From Gracilariopsis chorda (Eukaryota; Rhodophyta; Florideophyceae; Gracilariales; Gracilariaceae), in contig NBIV01000065.1 of the NCBI GenBank assembly GCA_003194525.1, forward strand, positions 124,001-188,000: DNA of 64,000 bases, read 5' to 3'. Positions within the stretch are counted from its first letter, which is position 1. The number at the start of each line of letters is the position of its first letter. The notes under the pieces were generated by a model. The model was given only the letters and a program-made list of their open reading frames with translations. It was not told the DNA's origin and searched no databases. The position numbers were made by a program, and so were the translations under genes. This document shows, piece by piece, positions 12-55,700 of this stretch.

Positions 12-880
12 TGTTGTTGTTGTTCTTGTTCTTGTTCTTTATGGGCGCACATTGTCTAATTGCGACGCTGTGGTAGAACTTATCATAATTCCTTCTCAAT
101 CTCTCAACTAAGGTTAACCGCTAGCTACTCCTCGTGAATGACAAGTTCTCTCTACCCTGTTACATCATTCTTAACTTCCGACTCAAAATATTGTTGATAG
201 CTGTTGCGTGCTCCCACCCTGCAGCAGCCGTGTTACGCTCACCAACTGGTATTCCAAGACGTAGTAGAATGGTGCAAAACTTCTACGGGGAGACCCGAAT
301 ATATAATCCATTTCGTTCTGGCGCATTTCGCCTCTTCCAGACTTTGCTCTGCTAATCCTTCCTCAACTCGGGAGAACGCCAGGTAAGGGGTACACCACGA
401 CAAGGCGGATTCCATGTACCACGTTCGCGCCACCCAGAAGATCTGGTTACATCTTACCCTCCCTTTTCTCTTTATCCTTGGCGATAAAGGGCGGTAAGAT
501 CGGGTTGGGGCCCGTGTGTGCTGTAGATCTCAGCGTAAGTCCAGAAAAACCCTGTAAAACCATTCAGATCCTTGTACAGGCGGTGTTGCTGCTTCCTAAA
601 ATCCCTAGTTTCCGTTGGAGACCCACTGCGGTCCCGCCAGAGTTTCCGTGGGAACCTCCATGAACCTTCTGGGAAAAGTTAGGGAAAGGTTGATAAGATC
701 CGCAGGGTTGCACGTGCCTCGTCCCTTCTCTCTCGCACAGATAAGCGGGGGTCTTTTTCCGACGCTACCGCCCAGGTCTTCAGGCTGTCGGTGCGCCGAC
801 TGCCTGGGCGATTTTACGGACATCCCGGGTCCGTTGAGGCGATCAGTCCGCCGATCGCCTGGACGAGTTTAACGACCTCC
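12..880 (-). repeat. Simple-tail retroposon-like repeat, copy A (long)
   Basis: Read on the minus strand, this copy ends at the left in a (GTT)n/(AAC)n simple tail (12-38), preceded by a conserved end that on the plus strand reads TTTATGGGCGCACATTGTC. Bases 38-632 are nearly identical in inverse orientation to 2757-3350. Bases 600-780 also match 37150-37335. The part near 800-880 repeats the motif GGACCCGGGATGT. Variable 5' truncation with a constant 3' tail is typical of non-LTR retroposons, but no reverse transcriptase is visible, so the class is inferred. A 64-residue ORF at 239-433 is identical in both arms and may be a coding remnant. Confidence 0.6.
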
Positions 881-1119
881 CGGGTCCCAGAAACCAAGGG
901 ATAGATAGGAAGAACGCACTTTTTCACTGGATACGTAACTGAGCTACATCTTGTGACAACGTGCCCAGAAGAGAACCGCGATTTGTGTGGCTGCCCAAGC
1001 AATACAAAGAAGGATGTAGACTACTATGTGATACCATGTCAGTTGATCAGTCAAGCTAGAACGAAGGGGTTATCGGGCCTCCCCGTAGAAGCTTGGTGCT
1101 GACCTTTTCATGTTCCGAG

Positions 1120-1470
1120 ATAGCGTAACACGGACAAAGCCAAACTCCGACTTCGACGTACTAGCTCTCGAATAAGCTATAGTCTCTGCTCCGAAAGCTA
1201 AGCTCTTGAGGCAGACCCAGTTGTGGATCCGTTTTGCTTCCTCCTGATTCGATTCGCATCAGCAGAAAGGTCGGCACTTTTTGGCGGGCGGACTAACGTA
1301 TTGCTCCCCAATGCGGGGCCACCAGCGGGTCCCGCGCGAACCGTCAGCGCAGTACGAATCCAGCAAAAACCACCTGGCGCCGCAGCTCCAGAGATGAGCT
1401 ACGACCGCTTCAACTTCGACCCATTTCTCCTGGACGAGTTTAGCGACATCCCAGTTCGAGTACGGACAAT
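1120..1470 (-). repeat. Simple-tail repeat, copy B (related subtype, no tail)
   Basis: This segment aligns by eye with 10110-10505 (same orientation) and with 36766-37108 (opposite orientation). Shared landmarks are the string GAGGCAGACCCAGTTGTGGA, the CTTCCTCCTG block and the AACTTCGACC block. On the minus strand the 1259-1492 ORF carries a Trp/Glu-rich stretch (KWVEVEAVVAHLW) whose DNA counterpart recurs in the other copies. No simple tail is left on this copy. Confidence 0.55.
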
Positions 1471-1499
1471 GTTCGTGCACTATGTGTCTCATTCACGGG

Positions 1500-1838
1500 C
1501 GTCAAAGTTGTCGTAGCGCATATGGAACCACGATACTAAATCGCTTTACGCTGGATGCCTGCTGTGGTGAGGGATCACTGCAAGATTGCAAGGTACTGGC
1601 GAGTCCTGCTAAGGGCACATGCACACATGCAGTTCCGCCCGTCGAGGTGTGTGCCGACCTTCCGAAAAGGCTACAAAAGACTATGAAGTTCGCCGGATGA
1701 GGAAGCCAAATGGATATGCAATTGGGTCTATTACCGGAATTTAGCCGTCGAATAGATGATTAGCCTTCTACTTCTTCTAGAAAGGTAATACCGCTGCCTC
1801 GGAATTAGATGCACATGCCCGTAAACACACACACACAT
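1500..1838 (+). repeat. Simple-tail repeat, (CA)n-tailed subtype, copy C
   Basis: This copy aligns with 37768-38002 in the same orientation, including GTCAAAGTTGTCGTAGC at the start, CGAAAAGGCTACA in the middle and a terminal (CA)n tract. It contains a coding-like tract reading EEAKWICNWVYYRNLA (near 1700-1750) that resembles EEVKWIRNWVCRENLA in the AAC-tailed copy at 36766-37108. That makes the two subtypes relatives with different simple tails. Confidence 0.5.
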
Positions 1839-2756
1839 GTCTCATTCAGACGCGACGGTAGTCTTCGCTGTGGAACTCCGCAACTCAGGAAATGAGTTCG
1901 ACCATAAGTTTTCAAATGATTCTCCTTCAACTGTTTCTCCCTTCGCAGTGGATATGGCACTGTATTGTCATGCTCGGTTGGGCGATCACATCGCACTCGA
2001 AAAACGTACAACGGCATCTATTCAACGCAGTTTATTCTGAAGCCTCTCCTTGAAATGTGAGTGCGCACAATAAAGTAGAGCGAACATCAAAATGCACTCC
2101 CTGTGATGCTCCGCCAAGCCACACAGATGGCGATTGGGACTACTTCGGAACCTGGGGTACGTTGGTAGAGAGACTAGTTGTTCCAGTTTGTACGGCGCTT
2201 TCGGAATTAGTGATATGGCCTGTGTACTCACACGCATACTGATTCGGACCAAGTCTTTCTACCATGAAGTCGACAGAAGATGTCTCTCTCTTTTACAGGC
2301 ACACTAGTCTAATTCCTACGTAGTGTAGAGAAGATGTCATGAGCGTGAAGAACAGAACAGCATAGACAAGCGCCTGAGAAATAGATACAACTTTTGTGAA
2401 CTTATATCTTAAAGGATGTTTCGTTCCTGAGTAGAGTTACGGTGTAACACGTTACGAGAGATAGCCATCTCACCTACATAACGTTCGCTTAACTTTGCAC
2501 TGCAACATAGAACCGGAAACAAAAGACATTATGCTCAGGGACGCGACGGAGATTGGTAACCGCGAATCTTCAGGAATCCAGGAACATCCAAAATGCCGTA
2601 TTGAAGCCATGATGCTTCAAGGCACCTACGGGGCCCAATACTTTCTTCGTATCATATGTGGCCCAGTGAGTGTAGCACGGCTGCTGGTTTGTAGTTCGAG
2701 GCTACGATATAAGAGAAAGTATTACAGCATGCTGGGGTTCTTAGCAAACCCCCGCC
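1839..2756. other. No recognisable gene
   Basis: Only short ORFs of under 100 codons are present in all frames, and none has recognisable domains. The stretch separates the two inverted 600-bp arms. Near 2760 the right arm begins abruptly after a CCCCCGCCCGC stretch. Confidence 0.5.
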
Positions 2757-3367
2757 CGCAGTGGGTCTCCAACGGAGACCAGGGATTTTAGGAAGCGGCA
2801 ACACCGCCTGTACAAGGATCTGAATGGTTTTACAGGGTTTTTCTGGACTTACGCTGAGATCTACAGCACACACGGGCCCCAACCCGATCTTACCGCCCTT
2901 TATCGCCAAGGATAAAGAGAAAAGGGAGGGTAAGATGTAACCAGATCTTCTGGGTGGCGCGAACGTGGTACATGGAATCCGCCTTGTCGTGGTGTACCCC
3001 TTACCTGGCGTTCTCCCGAGTTGAGGAAGGATTAGCAGAGCAAAGTCTGGAAGAGGCGAAATGCGCCAGAACGAAATGGATTATATATTCGGGTCTCCCC
3101 GTAGAAGTTTTGCACCATTCTACTACGTCTTGGAATACCAGTTGGTGAGCGTAACACGGCTGCTGCAGGGTGGGAGCACGCAACAGTTATCAACAATATT
3201 TTGAGTCGGAAGTTAAGAATGGTGTAACGGGGTAGAGAGAACTTGTCATTCACGAGGAGTAGCTAGCGGTTAACCATAGTTGAGAGATTGAAAAGGAATT
3301 ATGATAAGTTCTACCACAGCGTCGCAATTAGACAATGTGCGCCCATAAAGAACAACAACAACAACAA
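2757..3367 (+). repeat. Simple-tail repeat, copy D (right arm of the inverted pair)
   Basis: This is the inverted near-identical partner of 12-632, with about ten mismatches by eye. It ends in GCGCCCATAAAGAACAACAAC, a conserved 3' end followed by (AAC)n at 3350-3367. The left boundary is the GCAGTGGGTCTCCAACGGAG block that is also found at 37300-37330. The high identity implies either recent insertion of two copies in opposite orientation or recent formation of an inverted duplication. Confidence 0.65.
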
Positions 3368-11194: not shown

Positions 11195-13915
11195 CTAATC
11201 CGCCTCTTTCGATTTCCGGCTTCCCCTGCTGCTTTTGCTATGCTCGCCACTATCCTCTGATGGCGGGTGAATCAGCCGAAACTTGACATTATCGTCCGTA
11301 ACTGTCTTGAGACCCAACGTCAAGTCCTCGCAATCGCCGTCATCATATTGGACGCGGAATCTCTTCTTCTTGAGGCTATAAGATTCCACTACACCCGGGT
11401 ACCAACCATCATCCCAACGAACTTCCAGCCGCTTGCCGATTAACAACTTCATTTGCTTCTTCTCCTCGGGATCGAGCATGCAGCACGAGCTGGTGCCACA
11501 CTGGCACATGAACGATCGTTTCTGACTCTTTCCAAGAAGTCCGAAGTCCTCAAAGCAGTAGTTATACGTTAGTTCGGTTCCGGCCGGGATATCCTGTTTG
11601 GCAAAGATGCCGACATGCGTTTGGCCGGTTATCGAGTCAGTCCACTTCTGAGTGGCGCAGTTAGGATCACAACTAGAGTTGATAAACCGCGAGAGATTTC
11701 CTTTGAACTTGGCATCAACGAACAGGTCATTGGTAAGATCCATGATGTAATACTCATGACTTCCCTGTTTTTGCGCTTCACCCAGTCTCCGTTCCAACGT
11801 GTCCCGATCAATGATTTCGCCGATATACTCTATAACAAACGATCCCTTCTTGATGGCTTCCTCCACCCGCAGTCCCCACCCGCGTTGATCAGCCGTGAAA
11901 AACGGTCTCAATAGTGGCAGCTTTCGATTGTGAAAGCCGGTATTCGCACAACGCGGACCCCCCCTACACGTGACGGGGTTGCACAAGAAGCGCGACGCAA
12001 AATTGAGGCAAGCAGAGTCCGTACAAGACGGCTCACCATGGTCGGAGGGCTTGCAGTCACAGCATGCGACGTCCGATCGTCGAGGTTTTTGGGGCGGTTC
12101 AATTCCGTCGCCCCATACGGACTTTTTGATATGCTCATAGTGTGGAAGATGCGGCACAAAAAAATCGCCCGAATCACTCGGACTAGGCGCAGAAACCATA
12201 TCTTCATAGTTCCACCACGGCTGCTTACTGAGATAGCCCGACGGCCAAATACGCGGGTCCTGAAGATAACCCCAAAGCTCTCCAAGCGCGACGCAAAAAT
12301 CGTGGCGGTCACTACTGACAACATATCCGCGGGTAAGGCCCGCGCCAAAAGGCGCAAAGTTCTTCTCATTGATAAGCGCCACTTCCCCAGTTCCGAAGAA
12401 CATGCATGGCATGGTATTGGTAGTTGAGCTACTATCCGGGGAGAGTTTAAGCTGTGGATATCGCTCAGCAGCCATGTTTCTAGGCAGCACCTGCACGGGC
12501 CACGGCGGAAAGCCGCGGATCTTTGCCCAGAAGATGAGTTCACTTTCGGCACGACGGATGAATTCGCGCAGACGCATGTTGAGGTTTGAGTTAAGACACT
12601 CGTCGTAAAACTGGTTGTACAGCACAAATATGTCCGGTTCGTTCCACCAGCCGCGGGGAAAACGCTGAACGCGGTGACAAAACGCCTTGACTTCACTGAG
12701 CGCGCGTTGAAAGACGGCGCGCCCCTTGAGGGTGAGATGCATGCTCTTGCGCACTCCCTCTTCCCATGAAATGCAAGACTTGCGCATGTTGACGTATGCA
12801 ACCTCACATGTTCCAAAGTACATGACACAAGTATCCTCAAAGCGACGGCGAAACTTGGAAGCATGTTTGAAACGTTGCTGTTGTTCAAGCTCCGGTGTCA
12901 TGGGCACACACTGCGCAGGCCAATACGGATGCCCCTTAATCTTTGTCCACACGATGCGATGTTGCGTTGCAGCTGCAACGATCTTCATCAACGCCTCTGT
13001 GGAAAGGTCGTTATTGGCGCCCATGGTGGAGGAGTCGAGCGAATCGCCCGAGTCCGGGGTAGCAGACTTGTTGGACACAAGCTGTTGAGAGTGCGGCGCG
13101 GAAGGATGTTGCTTTGAAATGCGCGTCTTATCCTTATACTTGTCGCGAGGTTTAGGTCTGGCAGCCTTTTGAGCGCGCGCTTTATCAGCGTCTCTGAAGG
13201 TGTTGTTGACGGCTGGTAGAGGATGTTGTTTCTGCTGCGCAATTGCACACGGCTGCTGTGTGGCCGGCGTGACAGCTGTGGAAACGGCTCGCACAGAGGC
13301 TGCAGAAGCGGCCACGGCAAGCGCGGCAGCCTTTGCAGCGGCGCGAGTTGGCGTGCGTGCAGGCGGAGGTACAGTGGAAAGCGGGGCCGGAATTTGGAGA
13401 AGTGGCGGTGGCGGAGGTGAAACTGGCGGTGCTGCAGGCGGCGGTTGTTGCGGGAGCAACGTTGCGCTGTACGGCTGAGGGGCGGCGGGAGTTGCTACAG
13501 CCGCCGTCGCGAGCAGCTGCAAGGACGGTTTGGGGTTTTCTACGGGGGCGGGGACGTCGGCGGGGGTGGCGGCGGCGGTGACGGGGGGGGAGGGGGATAC
13601 GACGACGGCGTCGGAAACGGCTCGTCTGAGCTTTTTGACGGGCCGCTTTGGGCGCGCGTTGGGGGGGGGGGGGGAGGGGGAGGGGGAGGAAGAAAGGGGC
13701 GCGGAGGAGACACGTCTGGAAACGAGTGGATGAGAATTGTGTTGCATCTGTTGAGAGCCGGCGGCGGCGGCAGCGGCGGCAGCGGCGGCGCGAAGTCGCT
13801 TGTTCTTGCGCAGCGGGAGAGCGGGCGCGGCGGGCGGGTTGGGCGATATCGGCTCGTCCGTAACGGAGGCGATTTCGTGCATGGGCACGATCCACGGCAC
13901 CAGTTTGCGGAACAT
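11195..13915 (-). CDS. NSD-like SET-domain histone methyltransferase with two PWWP domains, 906 aa
   Basis: Predicted nuclear H3K36-type lysine methyltransferase. The N-terminal 300 residues are low-complexity (poly-Ala, Pro and Ser/Pro). PWWP 1 is at about 315-410 (IVWTKIKGHPYWPAQ) and PWWP 2 at about 455-560 (LIFWAKIRGFPPWPVQV). An AWS Cys cluster follows at about 615-655 (CCDCKPSD to CRGGPRCAN), then SET at about 660-790 (RGWGLRVEE; GSFVIEYIGEIID; ELTYNY), post-SET CQCGTSSCC, and a Tudor-like C-terminal fold at about 825-870 (GKRLEVRWDDGWYPGVVESY). Two PWWPs plus AWS-SET-postSET match NSD architecture, but no PHD fingers are seen. The usual NHSC substrate/SAM motif reads NSSC here (FINSSCDPNC), so activity needs testing. 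It is a single exon, and the start codon abuts a GC-rich microsatellite leader. Confidence 0.85.
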   Translation of the reverse strand: MFRKLVPWIVPMHEIASVTDEPISPNPPAAPALPLRKNKRLRAAAAAAAAAAGSQQMQHNSHPLVSRRVSSAPLSSSPSPSPPPPNARPKRPVKKLRRAVSDAVVVSPSPPVTAAATPADVPAPVENPKPSLQLLATAAVATPAAPQPYSATLLPQQPPPAAPPVSPPPPPLLQIPAPLSTVPPPARTPTRAAAKAAALAVAASAASVRAVSTAVTPATQQPCAIAQQKQHPLPAVNNTFRDADKARAQKAARPKPRDKYKDKTRISKQHPSAPHSQQLVSNKSATPDSGDSLDSSTMGANNDLSTEALMKIVAAATQHRIVWTKIKGHPYWPAQCVPMTPELEQQQRFKHASKFRRRFEDTCVMYFGTCEVAYVNMRKSCISWEEGVRKSMHLTLKGRAVFQRALSEVKAFCHRVQRFPRGWWNEPDIFVLYNQFYDECLNSNLNMRLREFIRRAESELIFWAKIRGFPPWPVQVLPRNMAAERYPQLKLSPDSSSTTNTMPCMFFGTGEVALINEKNFAPFGAGLTRGYVVSSDRHDFCVALGELWGYLQDPRIWPSGYLSKQPWWNYEDMVSAPSPSDSGDFFVPHLPHYEHIKKSVWGDGIEPPQKPRRSDVACCDCKPSDHGEPSCTDSACLNFASRFLCNPVTCRGGPRCANTGFHNRKLPLLRPFFTADQRGWGLRVEEAIKKGSFVIEYIGEIIDRDTLERRLGEAQKQGSHEYYIMDLTNDLFVDAKFKGNLSRFINSSCDPNCATQKWTDSITGQTHVGIFAKQDIPAGTELTYNYCFEDFGLLGKSQKRSFMCQCGTSSCCMLDPEEKKQMKLLIGKRLEVRWDDGWYPGVVESYSLKKKRFRVQYDDGDCEDLTLGLKTVTDDNVKFRLIHPPSEDSGEHSKSSRGSRKSKEAD

Positions 13916-36765: not shown

Positions 36766-37108
36766 GGCGGAAGGACCCGGGATGTTGTTAAACCCGTCCA
36801 GGCGAAATAGGTCGAAGTTGAAGCTTTCGGTGGTCAGCACTGGAGCTGTGGTGCTAAGTCGCTTTTGCAAGATTAGTACTGCGCTGAGGGATCACGTGGA
36901 AACCGCCAGTCGCCCTCGCGTTTGGTACAATACATTAATCCTCCCGCCGTGGTGTGCCGACCTTCCTGCTGATGCGAACCAGGAGGAAGTGAAATGGATC
37001 CGCAACTGGGTCTGCCGCGAGAACTTGGCCTTCGCGGCAGAGACTAGCTTCATAGAGAGCTGGTACGTGAAGCCCGAATTAGGCTTCGACCGCCCATGAC
37101 CAACAACG
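36766..37108 (+). repeat. Simple-tail repeat, copy G with best-preserved coding end
   Basis: This copy ends GACCGCCCATGACCAACAAC followed by an AAC-like tail. The plus-strand ORF (36731-37099) ends exactly at that 3' end. It includes WCADLPADANQEEVKWIRNW and FIESWYVKPELGFDRP before the stop, so the family appears to carry the C-terminus of a protein just before its tail, as non-LTR elements do. The protein family is not recognised. Confidence 0.55.
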
Positions 37109-37149
37109 ACAACACACTGCGGTCTATCGGCGCCACTTGCCTTTCACAC

Positions 37150-37396
37150 ATGATCAAGACCTGGACGGTAGCGTCGGAAAAAGACCCCCGCTTATCTGTG
37201 CGAAACAGAAGGGACGAGGCACGTGCAACCCTGCGGATCTTACCAACCTTTCCCTAACTTTTCCCACAAGGATCATGGAGGTTCCCACGGAAACTCTGGC
37301 GGGACCGCAGTGGGTCTCCAACGGAGACCAGGTAAGTTCTACCACAGCGTCGCAATTAGACAATGTGCGCCTATAAAGAACAACAACAACAACACA
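37150..37396 (+). repeat. Simple-tail repeat, copy H (internally deleted)
   Basis: The 5' part (37150-37335) matches the inverse of 600-780. The 3' part (37331-37396), with (AAC)n, matches the end of copies A and D. The about 550 bp that lie between these blocks in copies A and D are missing here, with the junction GGAGACCAG|GTAAGTTCTACC. Confidence 0.6.
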
Positions 37397-40006: not shown

Positions 40007-40862
40007 CATGTTCGGCAGATGTACATTGTACGCAGTTCTTTACTCTGCATTACAAGAACACATACGCCCATACAGTTTCTCACGCAAATGCTGCCTCGCT
40101 CAGCGAATCTTTAGTGAGTCGGTACCAAGTGTTGTATTTTGTGATTGAGACCTTAGGATTTCTTACACTTTTTCACACCGGCAGCATACAGACAGGTCGT
40201 GAAAGGGAAGGTATTCTCAACCTGTTTGATTTCTTGAGATGGAAGTGGTAACGGTCTTGGCAGTTTACTGTCAAAAATAGCTTCAGACTGGGCCCGTCTC
40301 GTCTAAATCTATGAAAGTATAGGCGTCTGTTTCTATTTCAAATAGAAAATCATGCCCCCTAAGGGTGTCGTAAGAGGTATCAGATAACCCTTCAGCATTT
40401 TGATGGATAGTGGGAAATCTTTTCGACTAGGGCTTTTATGCTGTTGGTAAGTGCTTCCAACATCAAAGCAGCAATATTCAACTTCTTGATTAATGATGAA
40501 TAGAACATTCTCCGGGTCTCTAAGGCAGTGGTTGGTTTTTTCTATTGTATTAGAACAGCCTGCAAGCCTAGGGTTTGTAAAAACCTTTTTAAGTTCAGAT
40601 GACGATTTCGTTCGGAGTCTCCGAAACGCCCAAGAATTCAGACCATTGCCCATGCCTTCCAGTTGTCTTGCAGCTCATGTTTATATTGACACCGGATCTG
40701 ACTAAATCTAGGCGAATTTCTGACTGGCTGTGGAAAGAGTGTAACCCTCTCAAGGGGGAAATTATGCAAAAGGAGAAAATATACAGAACATCAGAGCCAC
40801 ACATTGTTTACTTCCCACTAGTCCACAAGCTGTAGTAAACAAGGTGTTCATCTTCCTGTCCA
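40007..40862 (+). pseudogene. Coding-like debris directly left of the MULE
   Basis: Plus-strand open stretches (ending near 40251 with NLFDFLRWKW; 40493-40705; and 40599-40835 with DLTKSRRISDWLWKECNPLK) look protein-like but change frame. If the MULE is removed, this sequence joins the DNA just before the pogo-like transposase ORF, so part of it may be the 5' side of that element or its former host locus. The family is unrecognised. Confidence 0.25.
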
Positions 40863-40871
40863 CTCTCAAAC
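40863..40871. repeat. MULE target-site duplication, left (CTCTCAAAC)
   Basis: The 9-bp CTCTCAAAC is repeated exactly at 48423-48431, immediately outside both terminal inverted repeats. Nine base pairs is the hallmark MULE duplication length. Confidence 0.88.
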
Positions 40872-41170
40872 CGGAAAGGGCTAAACTACACGACGTAGCC
40901 TACGTCGTGTAGTTTAGCCCTTTCCGCTGACTCGCCTACACTACCTACGTCACGTAGGTAGTGTAGGCGAGTCAGCGCGCATTTGCACCAATAAAAAGAG
41001 AGAGTCAGCGGGCACGTGCCACGGCGAGCTGCACGAGTGCCCCTGCCACTTCAGATCTTACTGTAGCCAATAATACGCCCCTATTCCGGATTTCAACCAG
41101 TAGATGCGCAGAGTGAGGGCATTCCCTCTATCCTTGCTCTCTCCGGCTGCCAAGTCAGCACAACGTAAAT
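40872..41170 (+). repeat. MULE left terminal inverted repeat (299 bp)
   Basis: It pairs with 48183-48422. It begins CGGAAAGGGCTAAAC, against GGGGAAGGGCTAAAC read inward at the right end. It is about 59 bp longer than the right TIR, because of a terminal palindrome cluster at 40873-40976. Confidence 0.88.
40873..40976. repeat. Two abutting perfect palindromes at the MULE left end
   Basis: Palindrome 1 has arms 40873-40897 and 40901-40925 (25 bp, 3-bp spacer). Palindrome 2 has arms 40926-40950 and 40952-40976 (25 bp, 1-bp spacer). The right end has only one linear copy of the same about 45 bp. The left end therefore contains an inverted extra copy of its own terminus. Confidence 0.9.
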
Positions 41171-41250
41171 ATCATAATTGCTATTTGGCGCCCTCTTTGT
41201 GCAAAAGGGTGAGCGTAGCAGAGGGAGAAGAGGCATAGGGAGTCGTGATC

Positions 41251-42110
41251 ATGCTCCGCAAGCTTGATCTACGTCTGTTCAAACTCGACTGGATAGAATT
41301 CTACAAAAACATCTCAGCCGGCTTCTCTCCGGTATTTGTGGCAGGTTTTCGGTGAGCCTTCCGCCCTCGACATGAACTTCTCAGATACGATCTCTGAGAT
41401 CAGTAGCCTCGTCACTGGACCGTTCCGGAAATTCTTGGAAGGCTTTGTGCATGAGGAACTAATGGCGACGTTCAGTTCTTAAATCGATCACACACCAGGA
41501 AAAGAGTATCGAGTTATTTGAAGGTCTAGTAGACTCTCATCAATTGAGCGATCTATTTTCAGCAAATGCTTTTCCTAACTTGTTCGTAACTTTTTGATAT
41601 GCAGATTGATAACGCACGCTCTGGTGAGTTTATGGGGAGATTTATTGGCGCTACAACCGCCAATACCAAGCTAGATCCGAGTGATAGGAAAGAATATGGG
41701 TTGAAGTTCTTGGGATGTGATCTGGAGGAAGTTTAAGACCCAAAGCGGCGAGCAAACTTGGCTGTACATATTTTTGCCGAGTTCTTCAGAAGACTAACTG
41801 CTTCGCTACCAGATGAAAAGAAGAGGGAAAACATGGTGAGAAGATTGAGAACCTTCTTCGGTCTAAGTCTAAGACTGCGGATACGCGTTTGATGCGGCTT
41901 ATGGTGCGTGTGGGATTGGATTGTTTGTTCATGAGTTCCTGTGATACTATTGTTTAGTCTTTTCAGAGATACGTTGGCTCTTCAGTGATCGAGGTGCATG
42001 GAACACTTCCAACTGGGCTTCAATTTAGGGGTTTTCAGATGCAAGGAAAGTCTGTTCACACGTTCTTTGACGGGGTTTTACAATACGCGACGACATCTAG
42101 AAGTTGAATA
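41251..42110 (+). CDS. MULE passenger coding region, convergent to the transposase, novel
   Basis: It begins just inside the left TIR with MLRKLDLRLFKLDWIEFYKN (41251) and a stretch to SPVFVAGFR. Further coding-like stretches on the same strand are 41372-41482 (ISEISSLVTGPFRKFLEGF), 41605-41893 (FMGRFIGATTANTKLDPSDR; VHIFAEFFRRLTASLPDE) and about 41967-42105 (VIEVHGTLPTGLQFRGFQMQ). GTGAGC at about 41352 and acceptors TTTTTGATATGCAG (ending 41604) and GTCTTTTCAG (about 41966) suggest introns; at least one in-frame stop also occurs (41734). No family is recognised. By position it corresponds to mudrB of MuDR, but sequence homology to it is not claimed. Confidence 0.45.
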
Positions 42111-42233
42111 AAGAAGTAAAGTGAAGCAGAAGGCGAAAGAAGCAAGAAGTCAAGGCTTTTATGAAGAACAGAAAGAGCTCAAAGAGATTATGAAAGAAGG
42201 AAACGGATCAAACGCCTGTGGTCAATGCTACAG

Positions 42234-44615
42234 CTAGTGGATGTGTCCGAGAGACTTTGACATAATTCGAAGTGCTTTGTCTTGCACGTCTTGGGCTACG
42301 GAATTTGAGGGTGCCACAGCTGGTTCTGAGGATATTGAAGGTGGGTGACAGTCTTTCTGAGACACTTTCTGGGATGAATGTGGGCTTGTCCTTGCTCGCT
42401 TTCTCGTGCGCTCCAAGGAGCTTTTCTTTCTCCGTTGTGCCCTGTGTTGTCCATTGTTTGGCGCACGGATCCCTGATGAACTGAAATCTTTTGTAGAAGA
42501 AGATGGATGCAGTAAAGTGACAGTGTTCTCTGTTTCTTCCGCGTGTTCTGTTAATGAAGCCAGCCTTGTTTTACAGGTACCTCTAGCTTCGAAGTGTGTC
42601 GCTTTTCCTTGCTGAATGTCCGCGATGGCATCCCTTAAAAGACGTAGAACAACACTCACCTCAACACGTCCAATTCCAGTAGCTTGTCGATTTAAAGCAT
42701 CGTAGAGGTTTTTTCCTTCCATGTACGTATTGTACCCATCTACTTCCGAGTCTTCTCTACTGGTTCTAAGTATATCTGAGTCAACGGGGATAAACTTTTT
42801 CTCCGTCGACTCATCAAAACGGCGTAGTCGGTAATCCATCTCCTCGTTATTGAATTATCGGGTCTCTGACCTGAGTTTCGCCAAGTATGGGACTGTCATA
42901 GCAGAAGTATCTTTTCTCCAGTACGTAGAGAAAAGCGCTTCAAGAGGTATGAAGTATCCTAGTATGTTTCGTAGTTCAGGGAACCGCAGACGTTCTTCCT
43001 GATAAACCACAGCACATCGAACCATGTGACGACAAGCGAAACCAACGGACCAGGGCTGCCCACAGGAACAGACACCAATAAACTCTGCCTTAACGTCATC
43101 CCCCGACCCCGTATACCTTTTTGAGAATTGTACAACAGTCTCCTGTGATGAGCGCTCTTCATCCACCGACGCATTCCGGCTCTGACTCAGATGGCTTCCC
43201 CATTTCAACTTAAAGCGAGCTACAGGTCCAATTGCTGGGGTTGAACTACTTCCCAGGTTTCTGATTTCTTCCGGCCACGCTTTCTGTGAATAATCCAAAA
43301 CCTCTGTGCTGGAAAGAATGTAGTTCTTCGAGGGCTTAAAGCTCAAATCTATGAAGTGCGCCAAGGCGTAGTTCGTGTACTCAGCCACCAGGCTGTCTAC
43401 AACTTCTACAGGTAGAAAGTGCTCAAGCTCTCTTGTCTTCCGATATCTCCCACTTTTAGAAGATAAGGTTCGTACAAGCTCCAAGTTCCGGGTATCAGCC
43501 CGTTCTTGGGATATACGCCGAACTTCCAAAGGAACCTTGCACAAGGGAATCTTCTTCGATATAATGATCTTCTTGTATGCAGAGTTAGAATATTCGGTGT
43601 AGCCAGTTCCTCGGAACATGTAACGGGTAGGTATAGCCGCATTTCGGAAGCAAGACACCAGCATATGCGGCTTATAGTGGTACAAGTACTTGTACCACAC
43701 AGGGAGACGATCGTCAAAAGCATCAAAGTACTTGGATTCTAGCATTCTTCTCCTTTCGGAAAACGTTTCCGACGTATATGACTTTCTGATGTTGAACAGG
43801 TCTTTCTTCATGTCGTGCATCCACTCCATCTTACCAATCTTTCTACACCAATTGGCCACATTCGTCTTCTGATTCTCGTTCAGATGCCATTCGTCGAGGC
43901 TTATATAGGACGAATTGAACACCTTCTCAGCTGCATTTATACAGGCAGTGTTCTGGTCCATCACTACCATCGCCGGTGAGACCGCGAATATACACTTGAA
44001 GTAGGACAGAATTCGTACGAAGTCCCCTTCTGTTTCGGAGCACATGTACCCCATGAAAAATGTCAACACATGACCATCATTGGCTCTTCCATTAATGGTG
44101 ACCAGAGGGAAACCTTATCTATTGGCTATGGCTTTACAATCAATAGATAACTCCGGATCAATGCCGAACTTCTGGTAGTCTTCCATCCACTCTCGAAACG
44201 ACCAACCAGCGTACTTCATCCTACCCGAATCATCCGCAGCGAAGAATCCCTTATTCCCTGCATCCTCCTGGCTCAACGTAAAAAGCAGGTCACACAACCC
44301 TACACATTCCAAATCGCAGGGATTGCTTGTGGAGGAAGCATACCTCAACTTCTTCCTCGCCGACACCTGATTTATCTTTTGATTGTACTTGTCTTCCAGG
44401 TAACGTATCGTATCTCTAAAGCTCATATGCAAATCTTTCGTCATATGTATCGCTTCAGAACGCATCTGCGGCTTGAGATGTCTAATACCAAAGCTCCCAG
44501 AGGTACCATGTCCATGTTTACAACCATTCAAATTAGCCACGTAGATCATTCCACCATCTTCCTCCTGCCCAGAATCTTCCGTCTTAATCGTTATCGAGAA
44601 GAGGCATCGCCTCAT
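42234..44615 (-). pseudogene. MULE transposase (MULE DDE core and SWIM zinc finger), interrupted
   Basis: One minus-strand frame runs 44615 to 42234, interrupted by in-frame stops at about 44112-44114 and 42855-42857. N-terminally, NGCKHGHGTSG looks like the H-x-H end of a FAR1/WRKY-GCM1 zinc finger, followed by MSFRDTIRYLEDKYNQK, a MULE helical region. The core holds VVMDQNTACINAAEKVFN and LDEWHLNENQKTN, the second catalytic Asp and the WHL/N signature of MULEs. The SWIM finger CSCGQPWSVGFACRH is near 43010-43060. The C-terminal 200 residues are basic, with RTRKRARTSPHSS. The neighbouring ORFs at 44654-45781 and 45831-46628 are probably its displaced N-terminal portion. Confidence 0.82.
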
Positions 44616-44653
44616 CTTCTTATTGTATTAATCGCACCTCAAGATTCCCTTCT

Positions 44654-46628
44654 TCAGCACCCTTCTATTCCCGCGTTCAGCACCACACTCTTTGGAGACT
44701 TTGCCTTATGCGGAGATCGCTTTCGTTCTCCAAAGTATATTGAAGTCCTTACGAATAAGCTGTACCCGAAGCAGTCCACGATAAATTGAACTTCCTTCAG
44801 AACCGTTACAACAGGAGCATTGAGAGGAAGGTTTTCCAGATAGGCTAAGACAGCTGCTTTAAAACACTCCTCAATTCTCTTATTTGGTATCGTGTTCTGT
44901 ACGGATTCCGTGCCCAGTTCTTCATCACCATCTTCTGTCCAGTACTGTTCGTCCTTCTCTCCAAGGCCATCCTTCTCCTTTGATTCTGATTCTTCTTCAT
45001 TCAGGATGCCACCATCAGAGTCTTCGAAGAGGCATGAAGGACCCTCCTCTTCGTCATCTAAGAATCGATCAATGAGCAGCGCCTCCTCTTCTTCAACGGA
45101 TTGCTCATCTGAAACCTGCTGCGCATATGCAACGTTTGCGTTGAGAGTTTCACTCTCCTCACTCATTTTTGAGCCTAACTCGGCGCCCACAGCGCTTTGG
45201 GGTGCACGCTCGCATTTCGCGTCCACTGTTTGTGTTGAGGAGTTCGAAGAAGCAGCAGGGGGGTCAGCTTCAAAAGAGCTAATGCCAAAATCGCCTCTTA
45301 CGCTACTCTCGACGTTAAACGCGTTATCCAGAGGTCCATCCGAGCATTTTACATCGTTTATGCCACCTTTCCCGATGCCTTCCCCTGAAAGAGGTCCTTG
45401 CTGCGGCCTCTTCGGTAGATTGGAAACCGGCCTACCTCCTTCCTGTGAATCCGAGGAGTGTTGCTTCCAAAGCTCGGTTTTGGGTTCGTGAACTCTTCTT
45501 TGCGAAGCACGGCCATCAAAAACACCTCCCCTCTCAGGGCATTTCGTGCTATGCAACACGCAAGAGAAGGGATAAAAGTCCTCAGCCCCACTGGAGTCGC
45601 CATACGCCATATCTTCTTCGCTTCCTGTTTCTGCATCGCTTTGAGATAAAGGACCATGTGAATGCTCTAGGAGGTAGCATGATGAGCTGTTGTAGAACTC
45701 TGCTCCCTGGAAGGGGGTATGGTTCGAAATATGCATGAACGACGTACATATTCTCCATTTTTCCGTATGTGCTCTTCCCATTCTTGTAGACGGGAGGCTA
45801 AAGAGGAGCGAATGCCCTCAAACCCCCTTCTTACAACATCATCGGGGCATGGAAGTTGTTGGGGGTGTGCGTGTGTATCAGATCCTGTTCAATTACCCAA
45901 CATCTCGCCATGGGATAGAACTTTTCCCGAATGTTGGAGTGGCACTGCGACTTGTGCCGCAGACACCGCAACTTTCCGGTGAGCAGCGCAGACGACCTCA
46001 AAATCCTCGTCTGCAACACTGAGAAGTATTGTACACCATAAAGGTAGCCAAAGTTCTTAGCGATGTAGGCAACCAGTGCAGGGAGGTCAAAGACCTCCTT
46101 TAAACCTTTCAGAGCTGAGACAAGCCTCTCGTTTGACATCGCAAGTTCTTTCTTACATTCACCACCGTCCTGAAGTTTTATATCAACCCATAAACGCCTT
46201 CCATTGTTTTCAAATGTCTCTTGGACGTCTGCGTGAACCTCAGTGCATGACCCGGTCTTCGTAGTGCGTCCTTCACACATAGTCATTGATGGTAGCTCCA
46301 TGTGCGGCTTCTCCTGTATCTGAGCGTCAGAACAGGCTGCCAGCTCTTCATTGAGCCCTTGAGCTTGACCACCATTCTCAGAAGCCTGCTTCTTCTCTTC
46401 AATATTTTTTTCAGTTTCTGCCTTCAGCTCGGAAGGCGCGGCGGTATCCTTCGCTCCTTCTTCAGCTTCAACTTCTACCTGTGTCTGTGTCCGACTGATC
46501 ATCTTTGCTGGTGAATGTCCGTCAATTTCCATGTCTACTTCACTACCTTCTCCATTCTGAATCCTTTTCTGCTCCTGTTCTACACCTGATACTCCAATTA
46601 CTTCAGAACTTTTTTCCAGTTTTCTCAC
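44654..46628 (-). pseudogene. MULE-encoded acidic regions upstream of the transposase core
   Basis: Two minus-strand ORFs (45831-46628 and 44654-45781), in different frames from each other and from the transposase core, encode Glu/Ser-rich sequence. Each ends in a similar block: LPALVAYIAKNFGYLYGVQY in the first and VLKEVQFIVDCFGYSLFV in the second. The second block leads into the FAR1-like finger (the N-terminal half is typically GFSVR...). The resemblance suggests an internal duplication. The frame breaks are decay or introns; no clear splice sites decide this. Confidence 0.5.
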
Positions 46629-48027
46629 CTAGTGCTTTGTGCACCATCTCGGGGCGCTGTGATACACATATCTCAATCAATTTGTTCACAATTTCTGCTA
46701 CAACCGGAGCAGAATCAGAAAACTGCACTCGTCGCTTCATGCGAATCTTCAGGGGTAGAAACATCCCACTGCTCTGAACAGAACTTTGGTTCAGCTCATG
46801 AACACGCTTTGTTCGCTGACTTTTCCGTATAGCACGCGTCTCAGAGTCCCACGTACCCAACGGCATTGGCTGAAGATTCTTATCTCTACAGGGGTCGTTT
46901 AAAACATCCACAACCTTTCCTTCTCCTGCTTTTCGTTCTCCCAGAACTGTATTCACATCCATTCTCTCTTCCTTTCCAGGTTCTTCCTTTCCATTCTGCA
47001 TCCCAATGCTCCGCTCCACGCTTCGTTTCGTACGCTGCCGTTGTTTACCTTCCTTCTTCATGCGAAGGAGTTCTAAACGATGCTCTGACTGGAGCCGTAT
47101 GACCATTGTTTCAGTAACAATGTCGGTTTGAAAGAATTCCTTCGCCATGAGTAGGTGTAGAATCCGGATTCTAATGGACATCCATCGAATCCTTTCAGTC
47201 AATGCTCGGCCGTACCCAGAGGCATAGGTTCGCTTCGGGATACAGCCGTGGTCCACACTGAACATGGTGAAAAGGGAAACAACAAAGCAACCACAGCTGT
47301 GCGAGTCGTTTTGTCGCTTAAAACCTTTTATCTGTAGCATGTAGTTCCGCTCCGATATCACTGCACGTAGCGCTTCATCTTCTGTGAGGCAAAAGGGAAA
47401 CAATAAATAGAACAGTTTCAGAATCCTTCGATCAACAGACATTCGAAGACTGTCTCCAAACCAAACCGTCCATCGTTGCGTTCCTCACGCCGCATTGATA
47501 ATTTTCTTCCCTACCAAAACACTCCAATGGCTGTTAGACATGTTCAATGGGACTACAACGGTGCTTATCTCTGTATCACCATTACCTTTAAAGGTAAACC
47601 ACTTCTTGAACACTTCCAAATCCTCTTCCGGTATGTTTCCCTTCTATCCCTTGAATGACTTCGATAGTCTTGTCAGCATCACTCCAATAGAACATGAGGC
47701 AAAAGCCACACCAACAGAAGGTACCATGTTCAAAACAGCTGTTGAGATCAAATTGCTACACATTTCCGAATCAGGTTTCGAACTGTGTACCAAAAAAACT
47801 GGTGATGTTTCTTTGCCTTCTGCGATCAGAATTCTGGCTACATGGTACTTCACAACCGCAAAAAGAACTTCAGAACTCGCAGAGCCATCACTGATGCGCA
47901 TTTGCGTACGCTTTTCAAAATTCTCCCAGAACGACGTAAAGGTTTCATAAAGTTCATGTTCTGGGAGAATATCAACATAATCAGACGCTTTCTTTGCTCC
48001 ATTGCTCAAAGCAATAAAACAGTACAC
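46603..48027 (-). pseudogene. Ulp1-like (C48) cysteine protease carried by the MULE, interrupted
   Basis: One minus-strand frame from 48027 (MYCFIALSNGAKKASDY) to 46603, with in-frame stops near 47644 and 47490. The protease core is recognisable by its catalytic set: VVPLNMSNSHWSVL (His), WFGDSLRM (Asp) and FKRQNDSHSCGCFVVSLF (Gln and Cys). A basic, Lys/Arg-rich tail follows (QRQRTKRSVERSI). Ulp1-type proteases cleave SUMO or ubiquitin-like conjugates, and capture of such genes by MULEs is known in plants and fungi. About 475 codons. It overlaps the next ORF by 26 bp in another frame. Confidence 0.75.
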
Positions 48028-48182
48028 GAGAGCGGTAAGAGAAGTAGATTGGGACGTAGAGAGAGTCAGCAGTCTTTGAAAGGGTCGTCGAAGATGTGAA
48101 GGAGGACGTAGTACCTGACGTATCTGTCATTCCCACACATTTTGACGACGCCGCGCAGTAACCTCGACTGCATCTATATCTC

Positions 48183-48422
48183 ATTTACATTGTGCTGACT
48201 TGGTGGCCGGAGAGAGCAAGGATAGAGGGAATGCCCTGACTCTGCGCATCTACTGGTTGAAATCCAAAATAGGGGCGTATTATTGGCTACAGTAAGATCT
48301 GAAGTGGCACAGGCACTCGTGCAGCTCGCCGTGGCACGTGCCCGCTGACTCTCTCTTTTTATTGGCGCAAATGCGCGCTGACTCGCCTACACTATCTACG
48401 TCGTGTAGTTTAGCCCTTCCCC
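48183..48422 (-). repeat. MULE right terminal inverted repeat (240 bp)
   Basis: The inverse partner of 40872-41170 with few mismatches. It lacks the palindrome cluster. The Ulp1/transposase transcription unit would start in or just inside it. Confidence 0.88.
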
Positions 48423-48431
48423 CTCTCAAAC
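48423..48431. repeat. MULE target-site duplication, right (CTCTCAAAC)
   Basis: Exact copy of 40863-40871 directly outside the right TIR. Confidence 0.88.
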
Positions 48432-48474
48432 ATACTACAAGTCATTCCACTCCCACTTTCGGGCTGTCTCCAGA

Positions 48475-50334
48475 ATGCCCGACTCGATGTGGAAGCAAAC
48501 ATCCCGCCTAAAGAAAAGCAGAGCCAAAAGAGAGCAAACAAAAGCTGCTGACAATCGTGCTCTGGAGCTATTGAAGCAAAACCACAAAGTTGCCAACATA
48601 GCAACGACATGCAGCTTGTCCGTATCCATTGTGTATCTTATTCGACGCGCTTGGAAAACAAATAATCAAAAATGGCTTAAAAATTTACCCAACCCTGTCT
48701 TCCATCATCCTGGACGACCCCCATTTCTTAATGCAATGGAGCAAAAACTAGTAGTCAGGCGCATAGAACATGCGGCTGAAAGGGAATTTGCGTTAGATGT
48801 GAAGCATGAAAGGCAGTATATGGGACAAATCGCAAGTGATGGGCGCAAAACGTACAAACACAAGCTTCCCAGCATGGAAGCCGTTCGCTCCTTTCGGGAG
48901 AAGAACCGCGAAGTAACTGTTCGCAGAGCCGAGAACCATAACCACAAGTATTTCTCGGGAGAGAATACGGACCACGTTGGTACTTTGGTAGACCATCTTA
49001 AGCTCCTGAAGAAGCGCCATCAAGACATGTTTAACGACCCAAATCGGATTTGGAATGTAGACGAAACCGCAATTAACGCCCCATACGGAAAACGAGTAAG
49101 AGTATTTTCCAGTGCACGGACAAACTTGGGAGGAAGACGCCACAATATGAAAGACAATGGAGCCTACGTCACTGCTGTAATATCAGCTTCAGCTTCAGGG
49201 TTGGTTGCTCCTCCCTTCTTTATGGTTGCAGGAAAGAAAATAATGCCTAGTTGGAAGAAGGCAATCGAAGCAACCAGCGAAACCAAACTATCCCTAGAGC
49301 TGCATTGGATGACGGAAGACGATTGGATACCCGGGAAGACGCAAATCTTCGCAACTGCGAAAGGCTCTATGACAATGGACCTAATGCCAAAACTTGTGCA
49401 ACACATTAACATTTTCGATCGAAGATCGGTTCCGCCGCATCGCACAGTTCTACTTATGCTTGATGGACACAGTTCTCGAAGAGAGGAAGAGTTGATCATG
49501 TACTGCCAAGTTTCAAATATCATCTTTGTTCAACTGCCGGCCAATACCTCCCATTTCCTTCATCCATGCGATTCATCTATAAATAAGACATTCAAGGAGA
49601 GAAAAAGAGAGGTGAGAGATATGCTGTTGCACACTGGAATGTATAGAAACTCAAACATTGCATTCAAGATCAAGCTGGGCGTCGCCGGGTTTCATGCCAT
49701 TACTCCATAAATCGCCAAGCAAAGTTTAATTAACACGGGAATGTGGCCCATGGATTTCCAGTTTGTCGAAAACTTACGTCGGAGACTTGACGATCGAGCA
49801 CGCTTATCTGAAAGCACAAGGAGCGAAATGGGATTGGGTTGGCAGATGACATTGCGCACAAGCAATCGCGTTGTGTATTCAAGAATCAAAGCGATTGTTA
49901 ACCGTGAGCCCTGTCCAACGCAAGGTCTTTGTCTTATTGAACAAACGTTACAAGAGAATCGCCCTTCTCCTCGCATTCTTTGGGAATCTGCTCCGCTGCG
50001 ATCACCAGTGCGGAGTATTAGGGACAAGAATGGAAATGCTTGCGGGGCGCCAGCTGCAGTTTTGACAAACCGCGTTTTTATGACAGACATTACGAACAGG
50101 AATAACCTTCTGAGGGTCAGCAACAATAGGAAAACTTTGAATGAAGCTTCAACGAGACACACAAAACGGAAGAAAGGCACCCTGTTAGATTATGCACTGC
50201 AGGATATGGATGACGATATTCCACTTATGGAGGTTTGGAGGTGTCGTCAAAAGTTGTGGGGGGATGGTGGCAAAGAAAATGGCGCGGCGGCGAGCGCCGC
50301 CGACGCCCTCTTGGGCTTGGCGCACAGGCGGTGA
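48475..50334 (+). pseudogene. Pogo-like (DDE_1) transposase with one in-frame stop
   Basis: One frame spans 48475-50334 (about 619 codons), broken only by a TAA at 49708-49710. An N-terminal psq/HTH-like region (about residues 20-60, LELLKQNHKVANIATTCSLS) is followed by RPPFLNAMEQKLVVRRIEHA. The DDE triad is visible as NVDET (D196), MLDGHSS (D330) and HPCDSSINKTFK (D366), giving a 35-residue second spacing typical of the pogo/Tc1-mariner group. The part after the stop (FQFVENLRRRLDDRARLS) is the family's C-terminal region, and the protein ends in Ala-rich GAAASAADALLGLAHRR. The MULE lies 43 bp upstream of its ATG. Terminal inverted repeats were not found. Confidence 0.82.
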
Positions 50335-50746
50335 GCTCTGAAGCCAAGACTCCGTATTTGTAGAATTGGCCCCTGTGCCCAATCTCTAGAGCTTGGTGGA
50401 AAATGCGATAAGTAAAAGTTGTTTCTATTGTGGCTGGAAGCCAGAATACTGTGCTCCAGAATTTTTTCATAATTTATCCCTTGGGAGGGTTACCCTTGGT
50501 ACAAAGTTGGTTTCATTAGAAATGCAAGAAAGCATGCGAAAACAAGAAACGCTGATTTCGTGGCTAATGGTAGATATAGCTACAGAATATGGAGATACAA
50601 AACGAATCATTCTTGTTTGACTTATATCAATTGCTGACTGGCGTATTGTTTATCTCCTGTAAACTCTCCTGAACCCTGCCATTCCTCTGCAGCTCTGAAT
50701 GCATGTCGATCACAAAAGTTTGGAATATACCCGACCTATCGGTTCT
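50335..50746. other. Pogo-like element 3' flank, unassigned
   Basis: A 75-codon ORF (50393-50620) is present without domains. I searched by eye for an inverted terminus matching sequence left of the MULE or left of 48475 and found none. Confidence 0.35.
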
Positions 50747-53875: not shown

Positions 53876-55700
53876 TCATAGCCTATTTAAACCTCTCAGA
53901 TGAAAACCATCCGTCATAAAAAGCTTAAACCAATCTTCCAAAGTCTTCTCTTGACGCGAACCAGCAATCCCCAGCGCAGACTGTGCCATCTCACTGCTAA
54001 GCAGCATCAAGCCAAATTCAGTGCCCACCACTCTAAACTGACGGAGCACAAACCAATCTGCGCAGCGTTTTTCGACGGTGAGAGGCACGCAGATACTTCC
54101 AATCACCTGCTCCACATTTGTCCGCAGATTCGAGACTTGCTCTCCATCAATGCGTCGCCTGGTATAAAGAACATTTTGAAGCGAATAGCTTCGCTTGGCA
54201 ACAGCTATCCATTTGTTCAAACGTTCTTGTAAAGACGTGGGAAAAGTGTACATAAACCTCAGAATGTTCGCGAACTTCTCCGTTACCTGTTCGCAAACAT
54301 CCACTGCAGTATCTTTCTTCTGCCCAAGCACCGGAGGCTCCAACATTCTTCGTCGCGAAAAAAGGCTCCATTCCAAGCTGTGGGTTGTTGTTGAGAACAA
54401 AACCTCGCCTCCTGTCGAACTGAACGTTCGAAGCAATGCCACTATTCCCGTTTTCACTTGTATCCACAGCGAGAACATTCTCAGCCGCCTTACCCATTTC
54501 GTAACCTTCCTCCACATCACCCCTGCTGGGGTTGAGGCACGAAGAGGCAACAAATGGATGAACGGATGAACGCAGATTAGGTGGTCGGGCATTACAAATA
54601 CTGAGCTGAACCCAAATTCAGGCAACAGCTCCATAAAAGACGCCTTGCCGTAGCCTCTGTCCGCAGTGACTATGCAATTGTTGGTGGCCCTCCCCCCGCG
54701 ACCTTCCGTTAGCACCGTAAACAGGCGACGTACCAAATCAAGTTGAGATTCTCCTGGACGTCTAAAATGCAAGGCAAGCACCAGCCTTAACAGTGCATCA
54801 GCCACAGCATCTGCAGAGTGCCCCTCCTTGTCCACTTTCCTCACGCTCTGCATCTTCACTTGATTTTTATTTGCACGGGTAACGTAAAGATCGTCATCTA
54901 AAGTAGCAAGGAGATGAATCCGAACGAAAAACCTCTTCTTCGTGTCGCTAAAAGATAGCTGCTCAATTTCCTCAAGCTGTTGAGTCTGGTCTCGCTGCGA
55001 GTTCCATTCCATCTGCTCATCATGGCCACGGCCCGTAGCGGAAAATGTAAGGATGTTACTTGCAATAAACCGAATCCTCTCTAGAGAGGGTGTGGAATTA
55101 CCCGACTGTCGAAGTACATCAATGGTCTCGCAAATGCTAAACCGAGTTGTGTGCGACAACAGTAGAACTGCGACGTAGCGGTACATTTCAGAAACCTTGA
55201 TGGCGTCAATTCAACAGTTCTGCAGCCTGATGAGTTCACAGAGCCACTCTTTCAGCCGTTGTAGAACGCAATTAATGAACGAAATAACAAACCCACCCCT
55301 TGTCGGTGCAATGTCTGGAATGACGCACTCTAGTTCTATCTTTCTAACGTTTTTGCACAAAAGTCTTGCTCGCTCGTGTAGAACTTTCCGAGTGATTGAT
55401 TGCCCCAGCTTTACGGATATTCATTGAGAAAAACTAAGATTCCATCAATCTCTAGGATTATCTCAGTTTTCACGAGCAGTGCGGCCAGCACTCGTGCCTG
55501 GACTTCGTCCCCGTGCTCTGCCACGGTCTCTCCTCCTCGGAGTTTTGCGTCCCCTGCCCCATAATCTCACTGTTGCACGATCAATTCGAACAGGTTCAAG
55601 CCCCTCGTGTCCACTGCTTGGCTCCACGGGAAAAGAAATAGCCGTGTTTGTAGATTTGGTCACAGGCACATTCCTTTTGTTAGCATCACTAGCATTTTGA
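53876..55700 (-). pseudogene. DDE-type transposase gene (piggyBac-like?), interrupted
   Basis: The main frame is 55186-53876 (436 codons). It contains FFVRIHLLATLDDDLYVTRA, KVDKEGHSADAVADALLRLV, VTADRGYGKASFMELLPEFG and FVMPDHL. The DDDL, TADRGYG and late acidic positions suggest an RNase H-fold transposase. The overall plan (N-terminal KVSEMYRYVAVLLLSHTTRF, then DDxL and ADRGYG) is close to piggyBac-like proteins of protists, but I am not sure of the superfamily. The same frame continues upstream to about 55440 past one in-frame stop near 55208 (PDIAPTRGGFVISFI). A basic N-terminal ORF (55463-55669, RGRKTPRRRDRGRARGR) may be its start. Terminal repeats were not located. Confidence 0.6.

What the first reader, a model, noticed from the sequence alone, without database searches (positions are those of the whole stretch)
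40872..48422. Full-length MULE with 9-bp TSD, Ulp1-like protease and an unlabelled convergent passenger gene
Seen: exact CTCTCAAAC duplications, long TIRs, FAR1/SWIM transposase and Ulp1 catalytic set on the minus strand, and coding-like sequence on the plus strand from the left TIR. Known: MuDR has two convergent genes, and some MULEs carry Ulp1 genes. Inference: this is a three-component MULE family in which the left-TIR gene is new.
Basis: partly seen in the sequence, partly recalled or inferred. Interest (0 to 1): 0.78.

Follow-up and report, generated by a model that had tools for sequence, protein, structure and literature searches.

The report
Decayed Mutator transposon with SUMO-protease gene
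This is a complete but mutated copy of a Mutator-type jumping gene that carries a transposase and a SUMO-protease-like gene; the claimed extra gene on the opposite strand does not look like a gene, so the find is largely ordinary.

Summary
The element is real and correctly bounded: 9-bp duplications CTCTCAAAC abut both ends (40863-40871, 48423-48431), and the terminal inverted repeats are 299 bp (left) and 240 bp (right), about 95% identical. The minus strand encodes a MULE transposase (PF10551, E 1.2e-6 on an intact ORF) and a Ulp1/C48 protease (PF02902, E 1.8e-5, only on a read-through of two stops). The minus-strand block has 9 frame breaks in 5.9 kb, so this copy is probably dead. SWIM rests on a motif; FAR1 has no profile support.

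The novel part, a plus-strand passenger gene, is not supported: 41241-42260 needs 9 breaks, like random sequence, and a third of assumed-intergenic windows match its codon-phase score. One likelihood test favoured plus over minus. Selection between copies could not be tested: no host genome is held and no relatives were found.

Ulp1-bearing MULEs, including three-gene Arabidopsis elements, are published, as are red-algal MULEs with 9-bp duplications and 244-bp TIRs. Verdict: new member of a known kind.

The parts
40863..40871 (.). left target-site duplication CTCTCAAAC
   Evidence: exact match to 48423-48431; the only two occurrences in the window
40872..41170 (+). left terminal inverted repeat, 299 bp
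   Evidence: blastn 95.4% over 219 bp to the right TIR; alignment
40872..40977 (.). two abutting near-perfect palindromes (40872-40926 and 40925-40977), including a 59-bp insert relative to the right TIR
   Evidence: self-blast 98%; alignment; DNA fold -60.3 kcal/mol, z -16.8
41171..42236 (.). spacer claimed to hold a plus-strand gene; no good coding evidence
   Evidence: 9 breaks against 8.3 in random sequence over 41241-42260; codon-phase score reached by 33% (41241-42260) and 39% (41171-42236) of assumed-intergenic windows
42234..42854 (-). probable C-terminal tail of the transposase, same frame beyond a stop at 42855-42857
   Evidence: 206-aa ORF; codon-phase score reached by about 3% of 130 assumed-intergenic windows; no Pfam hit above cut-off
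42855..44627 (-). MULE transposase core (PF10551 at about 43872-44123), SWIM-like motif 43026-43070; one in-frame stop at 44115-44117
44654..45817 (-). acidic ORF, probably the N-terminal part of the transposase gene, in another frame from the core
   Evidence: 387-aa ORF; codon-phase score +12.0; no Pfam hit
45831..46628 (-). 265-aa ORF directly after Ulp1, perhaps its C-terminal part; C..C..H.H pattern by eye only
   Evidence: codon-phase score +4.4; no Pfam hit
46603..48126 (-). Ulp1/C48 protease region with two in-frame stops (47644-47646, 47485-47487); H-W, D, Q, C-G set between 47529 and 47290
   Evidence: PF02902 E 1.8e-5 at about 47251-47691 on the read-through; motif
48183..48422 (-). 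right terminal inverted repeat, 240 bp
48423..48431 (.). right target-site duplication CTCTCAAAC

Best explanation
It is a full-length but inactivated copy of an autonomous-type Mutator-like element with two same-strand coding units: a Ulp1-like protease and, downstream, a MULE transposase with an acidic N-terminal region. Shown here: the ends, the target duplication, the two enzyme domains and the frame breaks. Inferred from known MULEs: the transposase bound the long inverted repeats, cut the element out and inserted it here with a 9-bp staggered cut; the Ulp1-like protease helped either by removing SUMO or another ubiquitin-like protein from repair or silencing factors, or by processing an element protein. 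After insertion, or shortly before, both genes decayed. The left 1.07 kb between TIR and transposase is non-coding spacer or an unrecognisable relic, not a working third gene.
For: TSD and TIRs. PF10551 and PF02902 above their cut-offs. In-frame stops in both coding units. Minus-strand block 42237-48126: 9 breaks in 5.9 kb against 38.4 (SD 4.0) in random sequence, 0 of 100 as low; 0 to 3 breaks in each of 15 overlapping 1020-bp windows. A codon-phase model trained without the element: 6 of 6 minus-strand segments score at a level that at most about 3% of assumed-intergenic windows reach. Plus strand of 41241-42260: 9 breaks, random 8.27 (SD 1.78; 382 of 500 at or below 9). Allowing GTR-AG introns of 45-120 bases: 8 breaks against 5.6 (SD 1.0), 150 of 150 random sequences at or below.
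Against: One likelihood test gave the plus strand of 41241-42260 a better score than minus (-2.5 against -28.1) and better than most dinucleotide shuffles (mean -21.5, SD 6.4, best of 200 -1.9); assumed-intergenic windows reach -0.7 at their 95th percentile in that test. An intron-like stretch at 41904-41966 exists there, but removing it lowers the breaks only from 9 to 8. In the N part of Ulp1 the plus strand scores above the minus (+6.2 against +1.1), and at 44277-45976 plus and minus are almost equally open. The C48 match needs a read-through of two stops. The role of Ulp1 in transposition is untested here, and a single-sequence fold of it failed (mean pLDDT 37.3).
Confidence: 0.85

Rival explanations
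1. One reading: a three-gene MULE in which a plus-strand gene starting at the left TIR and converging on the transposase is a functional partner, as mudrB is in MuDR or vanC in VANDAL elements, broken here only by decay.
For: Strand-biased likelihood over 41241-42260; an ATG about 80 bases inside the TIR end and an intron-like stretch 41904-41966; MULEs with antisense or several genes are known (PMC6446971, passages and section 6; PMC13317346, passages).
Against: Break count equal to random, 9 in 1.02 kb, against 0 to 3 per 1.02 kb for the minus-strand genes of the same copy; no codon periodicity; no Pfam hit above cut-off in five fragments, the best being Peptidase_A25 at E 0.09.
Confidence: 0.07
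2. The left spacer is an old captured host-gene fragment (Pack-MULE-like cargo) already broken before this copy inserted.
For: Red-algal Jittery-group MULEs are listed with various inserts, potentially host derived (PMC6446971 table); the likelihood bias.
Against: No significant similarity to a Pfam family in five fragments or to a solved protein chain for the one fragment tried; no second copy seen in the window.
Confidence: 0.12
3. Ulp1 and transposase are one decayed fusion gene rather than two genes.
For: Both on the same strand, with a nearly continuous coding-like block from 48126 to 42237.
Against: Stop at 45831 and a change of frame between the 265-aa and 387-aa ORFs; the frames of a decayed copy cannot settle it.
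Confidence: 0.2

Closest known systems
Ulp1-bearing MULEs of plants (Kaonashi/KI elements and KIU-carrying VANDALs of Arabidopsis; ULP1 MULEs of melon, rice and grapevine)
   Same: MULE transposase plus a Ulp1/C48 protease gene; in the Arabidopsis group the Ulp1 gene is one of three coding genes (PMC13317346 passages); same and opposite orientation to the transposase both occur (PMC2528002 passages)
   Different: KI elements are non-TIR MULEs with Ulp1 in reverse orientation to mudrA; here the TIRs are 240-299 bp and Ulp1 lies on the transposase strand
MULE-Cc groups 36 and 38 of red algae
   Same: Group 38: 9-bp TSD (in part not indicated), TIR 244 and 640 bp, SWIM; group 36: inserts, potentially host derived (PMC6446971 table)
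   Different: Both groups are listed with one ORF, and the main text has no mention of Ulp1; no sequence was available to compare, and the host of this window is unknown
Ulp1-domain Mutator elements of hydra and lancelet, and Ginger1 transposons
   Same: Ulp1 protease encoded by a DNA transposon (PMC2836005 passages)
   Different: Other hosts; Ginger1 has a Gypsy-integrase-like transposase, in some families with Ulp1 at its C terminus
MuDR of maize
   Same: Long TIRs and 9-bp TSD (recalled), transposase plus a second gene (passage)
   Different: The second gene mudrB is of unknown function and was not compared here; its convergent layout (recalled) is not reproduced, as no plus-strand gene is supported

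Membership tests
Mutator-like element (MULE) | 8-11 bp target-site duplication next to the termini | tested here: met
   9 bp exact
Mutator-like element (MULE) | terminal inverted repeats, often long | tested here: met
   240/299 bp, about 95% identical
Mutator-like element (MULE) | MULE-family DDE transposase domain | tested here: met
   PF10551 29.3 bits (cut-off 27.6) on the intact ORF; 31.2 bits on the read-through
Mutator-like element (MULE) | SWIM zinc finger C-terminal to the DDE domain | tested here: inconclusive
   motif CxC-x9-CxH found once in the window; no Pfam SWIM hit
Mutator-like element (MULE) | FAR1/WRKY-GCM1 DNA-binding domain in the transposase N terminus (present in some MULEs only, not required) | tested here: not met
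   no Pfam FAR1 hit in the pieces tried at E up to 10
Peptidase C48 (Ulp1) | C48 profile and H, D, Q, C catalytic-type residues | tested here: met
   PF02902 25.1 bits, cut-off 20.7, on the read-through of two stops; not hit by the two pieces apart; residue set 47529-47290
Three-gene MULE (VANDAL/KI-like or MuDR-like with convergent partner) | third or convergent protein-coding gene | tested here: not met
   no excess openness or periodicity on the plus strand of 41241-42260; weak contrary signal
MULE-Cc (red algae) group 38 | transposase clusters with that clade | not testable with these tools
   no reference sequences or host genome held

The most novel reading that the evidence does not exclude
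The Ulp1 gene and the 265-aa ORF after it encode one protein that joins a SUMO-type protease to a zinc-finger-like DNA-binding end, making a sequence-targeted anti-silencing factor outside land plants, analogous to Ulp1-bearing VANC proteins of Arabidopsis VANDALs.
Probability: 0.08. Interest if true: 0.5.

Novelty: new member of a known kind. Interest (0 to 1): 0.2.

Why it matters
It adds one more MULE that carries a Ulp1-like protease, in support of the published idea that desumoylating or deubiquitinating enzymes are repeatedly recruited by DNA transposons. The claimed new passenger gene would have mattered more, but the evidence is against it.

Tried and rejected
Search of the window's own genome: none held. 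Relatives by exact 8-residue peptide patterns (close relatives only): viral contigs with the transposase ORF, the Ulp1 read-through, the plus-strand fragments and, as a control, the neighbouring pogo-like transposase; 3, 7, 3 and 4 stretches matched a pattern, none encoded a relative. TIR 21-mer in viral contigs: 0. Transposase in prokaryote genomes: 43 pattern matches, no relative. tblastn of the transposase in plasmids and phages: no match. These collections hardly sample eukaryotes, so the absence says little. Solved structures: no meaningful match for Ulp1 (best a protoglobin at E 0.37), the transposase (E 1.1) or one plus-strand fragment (E 1.4). Structure prediction of the Ulp1 part without relatives: mean pLDDT 37.3, pTM 0.21, not searched further. 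Internal homology between the 265-aa ORF and the transposase N-terminal pieces, tested as a sign of a duplicated FAR1-like domain: none (scores 27 and 20; 151 and 469 of 500 shuffles as good). A first simple codon log-odds track separated strands poorly. Rfam at gathering thresholds and ARAGORN: nothing. Literature searches, seen as listings: Mutator/MULE/Ulp1/transposase, Chondrus/Mutator/MULE, Mutator-like/Ulp1/Kaonashi, red algae/Ulp1/transposon (0 papers), VANDAL/vanC, FAR1/Ulp1/MULE, Chondrus/MuDR, Rhodophyta/Mutator/C48. Papers of which only passages were seen and which did not decide anything: PMC6431247, PMC5735166, PMC10398659, PMC9569675.

Full report
Ends and target site. CTCTCAAAC is found at two places on the + strand of the window, 40863 and 48423, and not on the - strand; each copy lies directly outside an inverted repeat. 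The arms match over 226 nt at 94% without gaps and 219 bp at 95.4% by blastn. Aligned end to end the right arm is 240 bp and the left arm 299 bp; the difference is a 59-bp insert in the left arm. An exact 9-bp match at two fixed places has a chance of about 4e-6 (inference).

Left end. With the insert the left terminus forms two abutting palindromes, 40872-40926 and 40925-40977, each about 98% self-complementary. As single-stranded DNA they fold at -60.3 kcal/mol against -16.0 (SD 2.6) for shuffles. MULEs with several, mostly tandem TIRs are known (PMC3310237: abstract and section 4.2 read); the inverted arrangement here was not followed further.

Minus-strand genes. The 419-codon ORF 42855-44114 matches the MULE transposase family (PF10551, 29.3 bits, cut-off 27.6, E 1.2e-6); read through two stops it scores 31.2 bits, E 3e-7. 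A SWIM-type motif, CSCGQPWSVGFACRH, lies at 43026-43070 and is the only match to the pattern in stop-free stretches of 60 codons or more of the window, but Pfam's SWIM family is not hit, nor FAR1. The frame 46603-48126 is interrupted by two stops; read through, it matches Peptidase_C48 (PF02902, 25.1 bits, cut-off 20.7, E 1.8e-5), with an H-W, D, Q and C-G set between 47529 and 47290. The same loose residue pattern also occurs at two other places in the window, and the two pieces of the frame taken apart gave no C48 hit at E up to 1, so the identification rests on the read-through profile match. Further ORFs at 44654-45817 (acidic) and 45831-46628 have no Pfam hit but a coding-like codon-phase score. 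The frame of the transposase continues beyond a stop at 42855-42857 to 42234, with a score that about 3% of assumed-intergenic windows reach. The whole block 42237-48126 can be read on the minus strand with 9 breaks in 5.9 kb, against 38.4 (SD 4.0) for random sequence of like composition, 0 of 100 as low; 15 overlapping 1020-bp windows need 0 to 3 breaks each. Some of these breaks may be gene ends or introns. This copy carries disabling changes in both coding units and is probably inactive.

The claimed plus-strand gene. Four tests were made on 41241-42260. First, the smallest number of stops or frame changes needed to read it: plus 9, minus 10; sequences of the same composition (second-order Markov, 500) need 8.27 (SD 1.78), 382 of 500 at or below 9; 344 windows of assumed-intergenic sequence have a median of 7.5, 77% at or below 9. 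Second, allowing GTR-AG introns of 45-120 bases: plus 8, minus 6, random 5.6 (SD 1.0), with all 150 random sequences at or below the plus value. Third, three-base periodicity: plus -4.9, a value that 17 of 200 random sequences and 28% of 176 assumed-intergenic windows reach, while the six gene stretches tested scored +5.9 to +18.1 on their coding strand; those stretches overlap the training set of that model. Fourth, the same with a model trained only on ORFs outside the element: plus -6.9, reached by 33% of 116 assumed-intergenic windows, while 6 of 6 minus-strand segments from the transposase tail to the N part of Ulp1 have scores reached by at most about 3% of such windows. The assumed-intergenic stretches were chosen by eye from places without long ORFs and may hold relics.

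Results the other way. A likelihood test with an explicit non-coding model gave plus -2.5 and minus -28.1 for 41241-42260, and 200 dinucleotide shuffles averaged -21.5 (SD 6.4, best -1.9); its first half, 41241-41750, scored +1.7; assumed-intergenic 1020-bp windows reach -0.7 at the 95th percentile. An intron-like stretch, GTGCGT to TTTTCAG, lies at 41904-41966, but taking it out leaves 8 breaks. In the N part of Ulp1 (47485-48126) the plus strand scores above the minus (+6.2 against +1.1), and at 44277-45976 plus and minus are nearly equally open (2-3 breaks against 2). A relic of an old gene in the spacer is thus possible; a gene that decayed together with the other two is unlikely, because those have 0 to 3 breaks per 1020 bp and this has 9.

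Search for relatives. No genome is held for the window. Nothing related was found in viral contigs, prokaryote genomes, plasmids or phages; a control with the neighbouring pogo-like transposase also found none in viral contigs, so that collection does not seem to sample this host.

Comparison with the literature. Ulp1 domains in Mutator elements have been reported from hydra, lancelet, Arabidopsis, maize, rice and melon (PMC2836005, passages) and from grapevine in either orientation (PMC2528002, passages). In Arabidopsis the Ulp1 gene is one of three genes of non-TIR MULEs, and some VANC genes, which act against silencing, carry it (PMC13317346, passages). Red-algal MULE groups, one with 9-bp TSD and 244-bp TIR and one with inserts potentially host derived, are listed in PMC6446971 with one ORF each (passages and section 6); its main text does not mention Ulp1. 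That the host of this window is a red alga is only a guess from gene style; nothing here tests it. A search for red algae with Ulp1 and transposon gave 0 papers, so a Ulp1 MULE in such a host may be undescribed, which would be a new host for a known kind.

Mechanism. Most likely cut-and-paste transposition by the MULE transposase acting on the long TIRs, followed by decay; the protease's part is inferred only. In PMC2836005 the authors suggest that Ulp1 and OTU domains may activate repair factors during transposition (passage); relief of silencing is the other candidate.

Noticed in passing
40741-50493: The MULE seems to sit inside a pogo/Tigger-like element: 31-bp inverted repeats (87%) at 40741-40771 and 50463-50493, both beginning GTAACCC and so in keeping with a TA target duplication, around a DDE_1 transposase ORF (E 1.1e-15) at 48409-49710; without the MULE and one TSD it would be about 2.2 kb.
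   Followed up: partly
40872-40977: Double palindrome at the left terminus, as if a tandem copy of the terminus had its middle part inverted; absent from the right terminus.
   Followed up: partly
20-3367: 612-bp inverted repeats, 98% identical, at 20-631 and 2756-3367, with related pieces at 36779-37394; perhaps another long-TIR element. No 8-11 bp target duplication was found at the ends tried, next to the window's edge.
   Followed up: partly
53879-55210: 444-aa minus-strand ORF that looks like another DDE-type transposase by eye; no Pfam hit at E up to 0.01.
   Followed up: partly
11201-13300: Minus-strand ORF with PWWP, SET and Tudor domains, a likely histone methyltransferase.
   Followed up: no
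47411-47950: Plus-strand 179-aa ORF antisense to the Ulp1 N part, where the plus strand has a higher codon-phase score than the minus; no Pfam hit at E up to 1.
   Followed up: no
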